Assembly (NCBI GenBank): GCA_018715745.1
Contig: DVLA01000055.1
Coordinates: 1-49,133 of the forward strand
DNA from: Candidatus Coprenecus stercoripullorum
GTDB lineage: Bacteria > Bacteroidota > Bacteroidia > Bacteroidales > UBA932
Direction: 5' to 3'
Length of the DNA: 49,133 nucleotides
The position numbers and the translations under genes are program-made. The notes under the pieces are model-generated. The model worked only from the letters and a program-made list of their open reading frames with translations. It made no database searches and had not been told where the DNA came from. Below are positions 26,344 through 30,020 of this stretch, piece by piece (positions within the stretch are counted from its first letter, which is position 1; every line of letters starts with the position of its first letter).

Positions 26344-26351
26344 TACATTTG
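26344..26351 (+). promoter_or_regulatory. -7 promoter element TACATTTG for the DUF4493 operon
   Basis: A perfect TAnnTTTG lies in the 114-bp divergent region between parE and the DUF4493 gene, with a T-run at the -33 position. The predicted leader is about 40 nt. Confidence 0.6.
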
Positions 26352-26398
26352 CTGGATATTGTGTACTGAATTTTTAACCTTATGATGCTATTGTCAAA

Positions 26399-27631
26399 AT
26401 GAAGAAACTCTTAATCCCAATTATCTGCGCGGCTGTTCTCGTGGCGTACGGGTGTACGCAGGAGCGGCTCGGGTACGGCGGAGGGCAGGGCGCGTTGACG
26501 CTTACGCTGTCTAACGAGGGAACCTTTGCGGATCTGCCTAATATTTCCGCAACCTCGCTTGGAGGGCAGGATACGTGTGGCATGTTTACGGGAGATTACT
26601 CCGTGTCTATTCTGGACCAGGCTACGGGAGAGGTGGTCATGTCGTGGGAACGCTACGCCGACATGCCTTCGTCGGTGGCGCTGGATCCTGCCTCGTACAT
26701 AATAGTGGCCGAATCGGCAGGAGGGGAAGAACCCTCGTGGAAAGGGCCGCACTACAGGGGAGAACGTAACATTACCGTCGAGACCGGCAGGGTGTGTGAG
26801 GTCGATATAGTGTGCATCCCTGACAATATGAAGATTACAGCTTTGTGTACGGACTATTTCCTTGATGTCATGGATGATTATTCCGTCACGGTGACCAATT
26901 CCTGCGGGGGGCTTATTTACGGGCGTCAGGATATAGCCTCAATACGTTCCGGATATTTCGGGACGGCAGGTATGGAAGTCTGGCTGAAAGGACTGACAAA
27001 GGAAGGCAGGAGCGTTTCGCTTTCATTCAAGGTGGACAATGTCGCTTCAGGCGACCATCATGTATTTACGTTGAACTATAACGAAGACCATGCCGGCGAT
27101 TATACGGGAATAGCCGTCCATTATTTCCTTAACGGCACGGCATGCGGGACATTTATGGAAAAGGCCGGTACGGGCCAGGAGCCTGAAGATCCCGAACCCG
27201 ATGATCCGGAGCCGGATGATCCCGAGCCGGAAGAGCCTCTTCTGATTGTTTCTCCGGGGATTGACACTCCGGCCGTATTCGGGCATGGTACCGTTCCCGA
27301 ATCTTTCGACCTTAAGGTATATGCCAGGGAAGGGATAGCCTCGCTGCTGGTGGACGTGCAGTCCTCCACACTTGTAGATTTGATAAATTCCCTGAATATG
27401 GGCCTGTCGCCGGTATTCGACCTTGCTGACATGGATAATACCGAGACAATGTTCTGGGGAGGCCTTTTCGGACTGACTTCCGCAGATGTACTGGATGCTA
27501 CATCCGTGACCCTGTCCGTCGCGGATTTTATAGCGCTTATGCCTGTGGATACGCATAAACTCGTGGTTTCCGTAACGGATAATACCGGCTCGACGGTTAC
27601 CGAAACTGTAACAATTATCATAACAGACTGA
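26399..27631 (+). CDS. DUF4493-domain lipoprotein
   Basis: A 410-residue probable lipoprotein with a type II-like signal ending in VAYGCTQ (Cys19); the lipobox is not ideal. The main body to about residue 250 matches my recollection of the Bacteroidetes DUF4493 domain (GALTLTLSNEG start, SILDQATGEVV, SYIIVAESAGG). An acidic proline linker made of repeated PEPDD units (about 258-276) follows, and then a second beta-rich domain of about 130 residues with Ig-like character. It is probably on the cell surface or facing the periplasm. It is the first gene of a three-gene unit with an outer-membrane barrel and a PCMD lipoprotein, so the three may form one envelope complex; the function is unknown. 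Confidence 0.82.
   Translation: MKKLLIPIICAAVLVAYGCTQERLGYGGGQGALTLTLSNEGTFADLPNISATSLGGQDTCGMFTGDYSVSILDQATGEVVMSWERYADMPSSVALDPASYIIVAESAGGEEPSWKGPHYRGERNITVETGRVCEVDIVCIPDNMKITALCTDYFLDVMDDYSVTVTNSCGGLIYGRQDIASIRSGYFGTAGMEVWLKGLTKEGRSVSLSFKVDNVASGDHHVFTLNYNEDHAGDYTGIAVHYFLNGTACGTFMEKAGTGQEPEDPEPDDPEPDDPEPEEPLLIVSPGIDTPAVFGHGTVPESFDLKVYAREGIASLLVDVQSSTLVDLINSLNMGLSPVFDLADMDNTETMFWGGLFGLTSADVLDATSVTLSVADFIALMPVDTHKLVVSVTDNTGSTVTETVTIIITD
27187..27231 (+). repeat. In-frame repeat encoding a PEP-D linker
   Basis: Degenerate copies of a 15-bp unit encode the PEPDD/PEPEE repeat that links the two domains of the DUF4493 lipoprotein. The copies vary at third codon positions, so this is an old protein-level repeat rather than a recent slippage product. 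Confidence 0.75.
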
Positions 27632-28410
27632 TGAGACATTCCGTACTGACAAGACTGCTTCTCGTGCCGGTTTTCATGCTTTGTTCCGTGCAGCTTTTAT
27701 CCGCACAGAAATTCGACAGGGGAATGGGGTTGAGAGAGGCTTCCGTATTCATGCCCAAGGGACATATAATGTTCGGTGGGACGGTGAGTTATCAGGATTA
27801 TAAGTTTTACGATTACAAGTTCCTGATACTCGATAACATGAAGCTTAATGCATATTCGCTCAAGGCTACTCCGTACGTGTATTATACGTTTGCCAAGAAT
27901 ATGGCGGTCGGCGTAAGGTTCTCCTATGAGAGATTCCTTGCGAAGGTGGACCGGGTGGACATATCCCTGTCGGATGATCTGACTTTCGGCATAGATGATT
28001 ATTACAATCTGCAGCATACGTATTTCGGCTCCGTTTCCTACCGCTATTATATCCCGCTCGGGAAAAGCAGGGTGTTCGGGCTTTTCAGCGACATATCCCT
28101 GAATTTCGGGGCAGGGCAGGGGAAGGTCATATCCGGCAGCGGTCAGAACATGACCGGGACTTATCAGAGTATCCTCGATATCGGGATAGATGTTATTCCC
28201 GGCCTTGTAGTCTTTATAACCAACGAGATGTCCGTAGAGGCCTCTGTCGGTATCCTCGGCCTTGAATGGAAAAGGATTTCCCAGACGACAAATCAGGTCT
28301 ACGAGGGGAGCTATGAGACAAGTTCCGCCAATTTCAAATTGAATTTACTATCTATCAGCATAGGCGTCAATTTTGTGATGCCATTGATAAAGGACAAGAA
28401 GAAAAGTTAG
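27631..28410 (+). CDS. Outer-membrane beta-barrel protein
   Basis: A 259-residue protein with signal peptide (LLLVPVFMLCSVQLLSAQ) and alternating hydrophobic strands consistent with a barrel of about 8-12 strands (for example FGGTVSYQDYKFY, AVGVRFSYERF and SVSYRYYIPLG). No OmpA-like peptidoglycan domain is present, and the protein ends in strand INFVMPLI plus a basic tail. It is likely in the outer membrane. The start shares one base with the upstream DUF4493 stop (TGATG), and the PCMD gene follows after 2 bp, so the three genes are surely co-transcribed. Confidence 0.8.
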   Translation: MRHSVLTRLLLVPVFMLCSVQLLSAQKFDRGMGLREASVFMPKGHIMFGGTVSYQDYKFYDYKFLILDNMKLNAYSLKATPYVYYTFAKNMAVGVRFSYERFLAKVDRVDISLSDDLTFGIDDYYNLQHTYFGSVSYRYYIPLGKSRVFGLFSDISLNFGAGQGKVISGSGQNMTGTYQSILDIGIDVIPGLVVFITNEMSVEASVGILGLEWKRISQTTNQVYEGSYETSSANFKLNLLSISIGVNFVMPLIKDKKKS

Positions 28411-28412
28411 TT

Positions 28413-30020
28413 ATGAGATTCCCGCTGGATTTTATGAAACATCTTCTCGGGGCCGGGGCTGCCTTTCTGCTGGCTTTGCCTTCCGGTTGCATAAAGAACG
28501 ATATACCATATCCCTATAAACCCGGGGAGATACTTGCAATCGAGGTAGAGGGACAGTCGGGACAGGCCGCTATCGATTTGCAGGCAAGGACAGTTTCGCT
28601 TCAGGTTGTGGATACGGCAGATTTGCATAATCTTAAAGTATTGGAATTCAGGGTGACTGACAGCACTTCTGTGGAGCCGGGAATAGATTCCGTCATTGAC
28701 CTTTCCCAGCCCCGTAAGTATGTTCTGACAACTTATCCGGACCAGGCTTATGAGTGGACAGTGTCTGCAACACAGAACATCGAGCGTTATATCATAGCCG
28801 AGAACCAGGTAGGTGATGCAGTGTTTAATGTGGAAGAACGCCAGGCTATTTTGTACGTTTCTGTAGACCAGCCGCTCGACGCTATAAATATTATCGATGT
28901 GCAGTTGGGGCCTTCCAATTCGTCAATCACCCCTGACCCGAGGCAGGAACACGATTATTCGACCCTGAAGGAATTCGAAGTCGCTTACAGGGATGTCAGG
29001 GAAATATGGACAATAAGCGCCGTGCAGCGGGAAATAGAGGTGGAAACGGGCAACCCCGACGCCTGGGCTTCCTTTGCTTACCTTACAGGGATGTATTCGG
29101 CCCAGACGGGCGAGCCTTCATTTCTTTACAGGGAGGCATCCTCTTCCGAATGGACGGAGGTCCCTTCATCTGAAGTCGTAATTGAAGGCCATTCGTTCGA
29201 GGCCCGTGTTACCGGGCTGAAACCGGGGTCTTCCTATGTATACAAGGCTGTCGCCGGGGATTTGGAAGGGGATGAGGTGACCTTTGTGACAGAGGATGCC
29301 GTACAGATGATAAACATGGATTTCGATGACTGGATAAAGGAAGGCAAGAGCTGGTTTCCCAATGCCGACCTGGGAAGCGGCTACTGGTGGGATTCGGGAA
29401 ACAGGGGCGCTAATGCCATAGGCGAAAACAATCCTACTTCCCCTGAAGAGGATTTCGTTGCGGTCTCCGGAGAAGGGAAGAGGGCTGCAAGGATGGAGAC
29501 GGTAGTCGTTGCCGGCTTCATGGCCGGAGGGAATATTTTCTCGGGCGAATTCCTGCGTGTGGCCATTCCCGGTGCGGAAGTCGCTTTCGGTAGACCTTTT
29601 ACTTCCCGCCCGTTGCAGCTTAAAGGCTATTACAGCTATGCTCCGGTCACCATCAACAAGGCACGTTCCGGAATGGAACACATGCTCGGCAGGCCGGACA
29701 GATGCCATATCTTCGTGTATGTTACGGATTGGGACGCCCCTTACGTGGTGGATACCAACAAGGAAATCTATCTTGACGTCAACGATCCGCACGTAATAGG
29801 CTACGGCAGTCTTGTTGACAGTGTGGGCACCGGCGGTGCCTATCGCGAATTTACCGTGGACATAAAGTACAGAAACAAGAGAAAGCCCACATACTGTGCC
29901 GTTGTAGCCGTGGCGAGCCAGTATGCGGACTTGTTTACCGGTGGAGTAGGCAGTCTGATGTACGCCGATGAGTTCAGTTTCGTATACGACGGTGATGTCG
30001 TATGGGAAGAAGGGCTTTAA
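28413..30020 (+). CDS. PCMD-domain lipoprotein
   Basis: A 535-residue protein with a lipoprotein signal peptide ending in ALPSGCIKN. The N-terminal half carries two Ig-like repeats of about 80 residues (around YEWTVSATQNIER and EIWTISAVQREIEV). The last 240 residues (from about 295, MINMDFDDW) form the PCMD domain, a putative carbohydrate-binding beta-sandwich found in Bacteroidetes. It contains the characteristic KGYYSYAPVTIN segment. It is probably surface-exposed and may recognise glycans, in partnership with the barrel and the DUF4493 lipoprotein. The ATG at 28413 is used; ATG 28434 is possible. Confidence 0.85.
   Translation: MRFPLDFMKHLLGAGAAFLLALPSGCIKNDIPYPYKPGEILAIEVEGQSGQAAIDLQARTVSLQVVDTADLHNLKVLEFRVTDSTSVEPGIDSVIDLSQPRKYVLTTYPDQAYEWTVSATQNIERYIIAENQVGDAVFNVEERQAILYVSVDQPLDAINIIDVQLGPSNSSITPDPRQEHDYSTLKEFEVAYRDVREIWTISAVQREIEVETGNPDAWASFAYLTGMYSAQTGEPSFLYREASSSEWTEVPSSEVVIEGHSFEARVTGLKPGSSYVYKAVAGDLEGDEVTFVTEDAVQMINMDFDDWIKEGKSWFPNADLGSGYWWDSGNRGANAIGENNPTSPEEDFVAVSGEGKRAARMETVVVAGFMAGGNIFSGEFLRVAIPGAEVAFGRPFTSRPLQLKGYYSYAPVTINKARSGMEHMLGRPDRCHIFVYVTDWDAPYVVDTNKEIYLDVNDPHVIGYGSLVDSVGTGGAYREFTVDIKYRNKRKPTYCAVVAVASQYADLFTGGVGSLMYADEFSFVYDGDVVWEEGL

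What the first reader, a model, noticed from the sequence alone, without database searches (positions are those of the whole stretch)
26399..30020. DUF4493, outer-membrane barrel and PCMD lipoprotein as one surface module
Three envelope genes with spacings of -1 and 2 bp encode two lipoproteins with Ig-like repeats and one barrel. No SusC/SusD, glycosidase or regulator is present, so this is not a normal polysaccharide utilisation locus. An adhesin or glycan-binding surface complex is plausible but undescribed as far as I know.
Basis: partly seen in the sequence, partly recalled or inferred. Interest (0 to 1): 0.55.

Follow-up and report, generated by a model that had tools for sequence, protein, structure and literature searches.

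The report
Reduced pilin-like surface lipoprotein operon
These three neighbouring genes are a stripped-down version of a five- or six-gene outer-membrane operon, conserved across gut Bacteroidales, that appears to combine pilus-type lipoproteins, a small barrel and a sugar-binding-type lipoprotein; I found no description of it in the open literature that I could search.

Summary
The three genes are real: DUF4493 lipoprotein (26399-27631), small outer-membrane barrel (27631-28410) and PCMD lipoprotein (28413-30020), spaced -1 and +2 bp. They are not the natural unit. Across Bacteroidales the usual operon is [DUF4493-PCMD] [DUF4493] [DUF4493-PCMD fusion] [barrel] (second barrel) [PCMD]. The window keeps three genes; its genus keeps the fuller set at the same chromosomal site. 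Barrel plus final PCMD gene is the stable core, and DUF4493 genes are gained or lost around it.

DUF4493 looks like a type V (Bacteroidota) pilin. Its model matches type V pilin and anchor structures best, and its profile aligns to the Mfa2/FimB anchor family (P 2.5e-6; reversed and shuffled controls fail). Relatives carry a [T/S/V/L]-[R/K]-[A/S/T] site in the beta1-beta2 loop (175/193 versus 50 expected), where type V pilins are cut. The window's copy has no Arg or Lys there, as in uncut anchors. The final PCMD lipoprotein has a near-constant C-I-K-N-D-I-P-Y-P N-terminus, absent from PCMD paralogues away from the barrel.

Best reading: a surface adhesion or glycan-binding complex of pilin-like and SGBP-like lipoproteins around a small barrel. 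Pilus assembly, glycan ligand, barrel docking and surface exposure are inferred.

The parts
26344..26352 (+). candidate Bacteroides-type -7 element TACATTTGC, 46 bp before the first gene
   Evidence: 10 matches in the window versus 5.7 expected; position suggestive, not evidence by itself. The two-box pattern with TTTG upstream is not matched here
26399..27631 (+). DUF4493 lipoprotein gene, 410 aa
   Evidence: orthologous to the ~410-aa DUF4493 gene of the larger operon, full-length BLASTP matches
26453..26455 (+). lipidated Cys19 codon of the DUF4493 protein (mature N-terminus C-T-Q-E-R)
   Evidence: invariant Cys in 39/39 orthologues
26483..27118 (+). DUF4493 domain: two beta-sandwich subdomains like a type V pilin/anchor
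26516..26596 (+). beta1-beta2 loop (residues 40-66), the place of the R/K cleavage site in relatives; here it has no Arg or Lys but one Cys (Cys60)
27173..27238 (+). Pro/Glu/Asp-rich linker (residues 259-280)
   Evidence: translation; low pLDDT
27239..27628 (+). C-terminal Ig-like beta domain of the DUF4493 protein
   Evidence: strands, pLDDT about 90
27631..28410 (+). small outer-membrane beta-barrel gene, 259 aa, no named family
   Evidence: unique in its genome
28413..30020 (+). PCMD lipoprotein gene, 535 aa
28488..28514 (+). lipid Cys26 and the conserved motif C-I-K-N-D-I-P-Y-P
   Evidence: 81/87 barrel-adjacent PCMD proteins carry the motif; complete PCMD paralogues away from a barrel do not
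28530..29099 (+). N-terminal Ig-like region, related to the N-terminal region of the levan surface glycan-binding protein BT1761
   Evidence: 8a9y_T, E 4e-10 to 6e-9
29100..29285 (+). FN3-like domain (residues 230-291)
   Evidence: sub-threshold, E 8.6e-5
29319..29981 (+). PCMD jelly-roll domain with the conserved pocket residues F376, F380, D506, F508 and Ca-site residue D519
   Evidence: compared with BT2081/3hbz in PMC2954218

Best explanation
The genes encode a cell-surface adhesion or glycan-binding complex of the outer membrane. The core is the small barrel plus the PCMD lipoprotein, which I infer docks on the barrel through its near-constant N-terminal peptide and holds its CBM-like PCMD head away from the membrane on Ig/FN3 spacers. 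The DUF4493 protein is a lipoprotein of the type V pilin/anchor superfamily. [quoted passage not shown] In the window both fusion genes are gone and the remaining DUF4493 has lost the R/K site, so it probably stays lipid-anchored, as Mfa2 does. Shown by computation: gene order, conservation, fusions, secondary reduction, pilin-like fold, loop site and its loss, motif-barrel association. Inferred: surface exposure, protein contacts, glycan ligand, any polymerisation.
For: Larger operon and DUF4493-PCMD fusions in Bacteroides clarus, Phocaeicola, Parabacteroides, Odoribacter, Barnesiella and others. Barrel followed by PCMD gene in 19/20 barrel-led loci. Same chromosomal site (gyrB-like/acyltransferase) with the five-gene form in Ca. 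Coprenecus. Foldseek best matches are type V pilins and anchors, including 3pay and 3gf8, E 5e-7 to 1e-4, prob 1.00. Profile match to Mfa2/FimB, P 2.5e-6, score 46.1 versus at most 24.8 in 40 block shuffles and 14 reversed. R/K loop site 175/193 versus 50 expected. Window loop without R/K and with a Cys. C-X-(K/R)-(D/E)-(D/E) N-termini in the DUF4493 classes, as in the export signal of PMC5080379. C11 protease gene in the same genome. PCMD pocket aromatics conserved while the proposed catalytic Asp259 is Gln/His (PMC2954218).
Against: No protein here has been tested. DUF4493 does not match the main fimbrillin family Mfa_like_1, and known type V pilus loci have no barrel that I know of. The core persists without any DUF4493 gene in several genomes (L090, L107, L109, L119, L127, L128, L142), so pilin-like parts are not essential. 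The window's DUF4493 and PCMD N-termini (CTQERL, CIKNDI) are poor matches to the export signal, so surface exposure is uncertain. TM-scores are modest (at most 0.43 against pilins). Most loci were recruited through PCMD, which inflates apparent linkage except in the barrel-led set.
Confidence: 0.5

Rival explanations
1. The operon is a true type V pilus variant: DUF4493 proteins are the shaft, anchor and tip pilins, PCMD heads are tip lectins, and the barrel-PCMD pair is its base; the window retains only a base and anchor.
For: Pilin-like fold and Mfa2 profile match; cleavable loop site; C-terminal ligand-type domain fused to DUF4493 as in tip pilins (PMC12632263); shaft-sized DUF4493-only genes of 240-300 aa, sometimes four in tandem (L104).
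Against: No shaft-type gene in most operons; the barrel is foreign to type V pili; core without DUF4493 exists; the ~410-aa DUF4493 protein ends in an extra Ig-like domain rather than a pilin donor strand.
Confidence: 0.2
2. A nutrient-capture or scavenging complex: PCMD proteins act like SGBPs or exo-acting glycosidases that feed a SusCD transporter encoded elsewhere, and the barrel is a small porin.
For: N-terminal Ig region resembles levan SGBP BT1761; BT2081 and paralogues lie in PULs (PMC2954218).
Against: No SusCD, glycosidase or regulator among the flanking genes scanned or as a recurrent domain-bearing partner inside the conserved operon; proposed catalytic Asp259 not conserved; DUF4493 has no place in this model.
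Confidence: 0.15
3. The barrel is a dedicated exporter or flippase for the PCMD lipoprotein, which carries its own signal (C-I-K-N-D-I-P-Y-P) instead of the usual export signal.
For: Motif tied to the barrel (81/87 barrel-adjacent versus none of the complete PCMD paralogues away from a barrel); strict adjacency; motif has one acid where the export signal needs two (PMC5080379).
Against: The barrel is small and closest to OmpA/OmpW, unlike Slam-type exporters; no direct evidence of transport; the motif could equally be a docking peptide.
Confidence: 0.12

Closest known systems
Type V pili of Bacteroidota (FimA/Mfa1 systems), especially the anchor family Mfa2/FimB (PF08842, DUF1812)
   Same: Lipoproteins with two beta-sandwich domains; beta1 strand followed by a loop with an R/K site in most relatives; window copy without R/K as in Mfa2; ligand-type domains fused C-terminally in tip proteins.
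   Different: Sequence similarity only at profile level and not to Mfa_like_1; presence of a barrel and an SGBP-like PCMD lipoprotein; extra Ig-like domain after DUF4493; core can exist without pilin-like genes.
PCMD family, BT2081 (3hbz, 4jrl, 4het, 3s30)
   Same: Jelly-roll domain with conserved pocket aromatics and Ca-site Asp (E 3e-26 by profile).
   Different: About 300 residues of N-terminal Ig/FN3 region and the NDIPYP peptide are added; the Asp259 equivalent is Gln/His; no PUL context.
Levan surface glycan-binding protein BT1761 (8a9y/8aa2)
   Same: Lipidated N-terminus followed by two Ig-like domains lifting a binding head away from the membrane.
   Different: Different head (ThuA-like in BT1761, PCMD here); no SusC to sit on, a small barrel instead.
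OmpA/OmpW-type small outer-membrane barrels
   Same: Small barrel fold (best Foldseek matches OmpA, OmpW, OprG).
   Different: No detectable sequence relation to any solved structure and no Pfam family; almost always tied to the PCMD lipoprotein.

Membership tests
Type V pilus (FimA/Mfa) | pilin is a lipoprotein precursor | tested here: met
   lipobox Cys invariant in DUF4493 orthologues
Type V pilus (FimA/Mfa) | two-domain transthyretin-like beta-sandwich fold | tested here: met
   model; best PDB matches type V pilins/anchors at prob 1.00, modest TM-scores
Type V pilus (FimA/Mfa) | R/K cleavage site in the beta1-beta2 loop of shaft and tip subunits | tested here: met
   for relatives, 175/193 loops versus 50 expected; not present in the window copy
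Type V pilus (FimA/Mfa) | C-terminal donor strand and polymerisation | not testable with these tools
   no complex modelling or microscopy available
Type V pilus (FimA/Mfa) | match to fimbrillin families Mfa_like_1 / P_gingi_FimA | tested here: not met
   Pfam scan reports only DUF4493 above cut-off; hhalign versus Mfa_like_1 prob 2%
Mfa2/FimB anchor family | profile similarity to PF08842 | tested here: met
   P 2.5e-6, prob 88.8, 111 columns; reversed and shuffled controls fail; too weak for the Pfam scan itself to report
Mfa2/FimB anchor family | no R/K in the beta1-beta2 loop | tested here: met
   window copy only; most relatives have R/K
Mfa2/FimB anchor family | loop-to-C-domain disulphide (seen in Mfa2 itself, not in other anchors) | tested here: inconclusive
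   Cys60 lies in the loop and other Cys follow; pairing not tested
PCMD / BT2081 family | PF13201 domain with pocket aromatics and Ca-site Asp | tested here: met
PCMD / BT2081 family | candidate catalytic Asp259 and Asp338 (proposed, unproven, in PMC2954218) | tested here: not met
   Asp338 equivalent D506 conserved (27/29), Asp259 equivalent is mostly Gln/His
SusCD polysaccharide utilisation locus | susC/susD pair with glycosidases and regulator | tested here: not met
   for the window's larger flanking ORFs
Surface lipoprotein (LES) | C-X-K-(D/E)2-X or two acids after the lipid Cys | tested here: inconclusive
   met on average for DUF4493 classes; window N-termini CTQERL and CIKNDI have one acid each

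The most novel reading that the evidence does not exclude
A previously undescribed Bacteroidales surface machine in which a dedicated small barrel recognises a fixed N-terminal peptide (C-I-K-N-D-I-P-Y-P) of one lipoprotein and uses this core to export or seat it, with optional type V-pilin-like lipoproteins carrying the same lectin-like heads assembled around it: a new pilus-like class with an outer-membrane barrel.
Probability: 0.17. Interest if true: 0.82.

Novelty: new variant of a known kind. Interest (0 to 1): 0.52.

Why it matters
It ties two orphan domain families (DUF4493, PCMD) and an unnamed barrel into one conserved operon across gut Bacteroidales, and gives DUF4493 a testable identity as type V pilin relatives with a protease site. 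If right, it adds a pilus-like or surface-lectin system to common gut commensals and offers a defined barrel-lipoprotein pair for studying how Bacteroidota place lipoproteins on the cell surface, which is still unexplained.

Tried and rejected
Ordinary PUL: rejected, no SusCD, glycosidase or regulator. A conserved three-gene unit as the basic form: rejected, larger operons are the rule and triplets arise more than once. Missing fusion genes elsewhere in the genome: own-genome searches show 2 DUF4493 and 3 PCMD loci and no fusion, though the assembly is 86% complete. DUF4493 as a member of Mfa_like_1: rejected. PCMD as an active glycosidase: weakened, the Asp259 equivalent is not conserved. Sequence match of the barrel or DUF4493 to solved structures: nothing useful. 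Bacteroides two-box promoter upstream: no match at the operon. Literature on DUF4493 or the PCMD domain: no paper in the open library; BT2081 is the one structural paper found. Disulphide geometry of Cys60: coordinates not available to scripts.
Full report
Observation. The three ORFs lie where stated, same strand, with a 1-bp overlap and a 2-bp gap. Pfam gives DUF4493 (residues 29-240, E 2.4e-29) for the first and PCMD (303-523, E 5.6e-39) with a sub-threshold FN3-like stretch for the third; the second has no family. AlphaFold gives a small barrel for the second (pLDDT 86.6), closest to OmpA, OmpW and OprG. The first and third start with lipoprotein signal peptides with an invariant lipid Cys. 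The flanking genes scanned are housekeeping (gyrB-like topoisomerase, acyltransferase, lumazine synthase, M20 peptidases, LptD, DnaA, FtsH-type protease and others); no SusCD, glycosidase or regulator.

What the unit really is. Searches of the order and of named genomes followed by domain calls on every ORF show a larger operon: a 700-900-aa DUF4493 protein with a PCMD-type C-terminus, a ~410-aa DUF4493 protein, a ~710-aa DUF4493-N-PCMD fusion, one or two barrels, and a ~530-aa PCMD lipoprotein. It occurs in Bacteroides clarus, Phocaeicola faecicola, Parabacteroides massiliensis, Odoribacter lunatus, Barnesiella, Muribaculaceae and Candidatus Coprenecus. Among 85 barrel-adjacent PCMD genes with neighbours, 62 have a fusion gene upstream, five have a single unfused DUF4493 gene (the window, L060, L062, L139, and L126 with a 766-aa protein), and eight have barrel(s) and PCMD only. 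The window's genus carries the barrel in 19 of 19 genomes and mostly three DUF4493 genes beside it. Ca. Coprenecus pullistercoris has the five-gene form at the same site, after the acyltransferase and gyrB-like genes. In the tree of PCMD lipoproteins the window groups with these full-operon species (SH-aLRT 99), apart from the Merdivivens-type triplets, so the reductions are separate (quick tree). The assembly is 86% complete, but own-genome searches find no fusion gene elsewhere.

Linkage check free of PCMD bias. Starting from the barrel profile alone in 200 genomes of the family (47 positive), 20 barrel loci were read and 19 have the PCMD gene next; in the exception (L145) the gene call contains undetermined bases. 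DUF4493 by contrast also occurs alone (L037-L044). The core is therefore barrel plus PCMD; DUF4493 is the variable part.

DUF4493 as a pilin relative. The model (pLDDT 84.5) shows two beta-sandwich subdomains within DUF4493, then a Pro/Asp/Glu linker and a third Ig-like domain. Foldseek's best PDB matches include, at probability 1.00, Bacteroides cell-adhesion proteins of the type V pilin class (4gpv, 3ufi, 3pay, 3gf8, 3up6, 5cag, 4k4k, 4h40, 3t2l); other multi-domain beta proteins also appear in the list. 3pay and 3gf8 are named putative anchors in PMC5789003. TM-scores are modest (0.33-0.43 by target length). An independent profile comparison of 217 DUF4493 domains with seven Mfa2/FimB domains gives prob 88.8, P 2.5e-6, score 46.1, against 24.8 at most in 40 block shuffles and 14 reversed; Mfa_like_1, PCMD, N-region and barrel profiles score nothing.

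Cleavage loop. Type V shaft and tip pilins are cut at an exposed Arg/Lys in the beta1-beta2 loop, while Mfa2 has none and keeps its lipid (PMC5789003); PMC12632263 names the surface clostripain as the protease. In DUF4493 proteins this loop carries [TSVLIPAF][RK][AST] in 175 of 193 cases against 50 expected on shuffling each loop, and T[RK][AS] is about 20 times denser than in the rest of the proteins. The site lies a median 31 residues from the lipid Cys. The sequences are related, so these are not 193 independent events. The window copy (NEGTFADLPNISATSLGGQDTCGMFTG) has no Arg or Lys and one Cys: by this criterion it is anchor-like. Triplets of the Merdivivens type keep a TKA site. The window's genome has a C11 clostripain-family gene.

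The PCMD lipoprotein. Its jelly-roll matches BT2081 and three further structures (E 3e-26 to 2e-21). Pocket aromatics F376, F380 and F508 and the Ca-site D519 are conserved; the proposed catalytic Asp259 is mostly Gln or His, the Asp338 equivalent D506 is kept (residue mapping by me from the alignment and PMC2954218). This favours binding over catalysis. The N-terminal region resembles that of the levan SGBP BT1761 (E 4e-10 to 6e-9), a lipidated surface protein whose two Ig-like domains carry a binding head (PMC7618045). Directly after the lipid Cys stands I-K-N-D-I-P-Y-P. A relaxed form of this motif is present in 81 of 87 barrel-adjacent proteins and in none of the complete PCMD paralogues away from a barrel. 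I infer docking on, or delivery by, the barrel.

Surface exposure. DUF4493-class N-termini tend towards C-S-(K/R)-(D/E)-(D/E), close to the optimal C-X-K-(D/E)2-X export signal of PMC5080379. The window's own CTQERL and CIKNDI have one acid each, so exposure of these two proteins is likely by kinship but not shown.

Mechanism and verdict. Most likely (0.5) a surface adhesion or glycan-binding complex with a barrel-PCMD core and pilin-like accessory lipoproteins; a true type V pilus variant 0.2; a nutrient SGBP-type complex 0.15; a barrel exporting the PCMD lipoprotein 0.12. No paper in the searched open library names DUF4493 or the PCMD domain; subscription journals and preprints were not searchable, so 'undescribed' is limited to that. 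Filed as a new variant of a known kind: it works like type V pilins and SGBPs, but DUF4493 fails the fimbrillin-family test and the operon adds a barrel.

Noticed in passing
L047-L055 (Ca. Coprenecus and kin), directly after the PCMD gene: A 374-417 aa gene overlaps the end of the PCMD gene by 10-25 bp in several species; in L047 it is a radical SAM/SPASM protein. It is absent from that position in the window.
   Followed up: partly
L104:11260-16587 and L120: Tandem arrays of three or four shaft-sized DUF4493-only lipoproteins (about 258-291 aa), with TR/TK loop sites, plus a ~680-aa DUF4493 protein, downstream of the PCMD gene; the best place to look for a DUF4493 filament.
   Followed up: partly
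L043:5928-7034 (G000:C92): A solitary DUF4493 lipoprotein (368 aa) in the window's genome; most of the genus has a similar solitary copy with a 367-430 aa frame.
   Followed up: no
L088 (JAMPAQ010000002.1): A contig titled Pseudoflavonifractor sp. carries a Bacteroidales-type six-gene operon nested among Muribaculaceae sequences in the tree; probably a mis-binned or mislabelled MAG contig.
   Followed up: no
L114 and L117: The operon is rearranged: barrels and DUF4493 genes lie in separate blocks (divergent in L114), yet both blocks stay together.
   Followed up: no
L045 (G000:C67) and L046 (G000:C3): Two further PCMD proteins in the window's genome stand away from barrels and lack the NDIPYP motif; the C11 protease gene lies about 8 kb from the one on C3.
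   Followed up: partly
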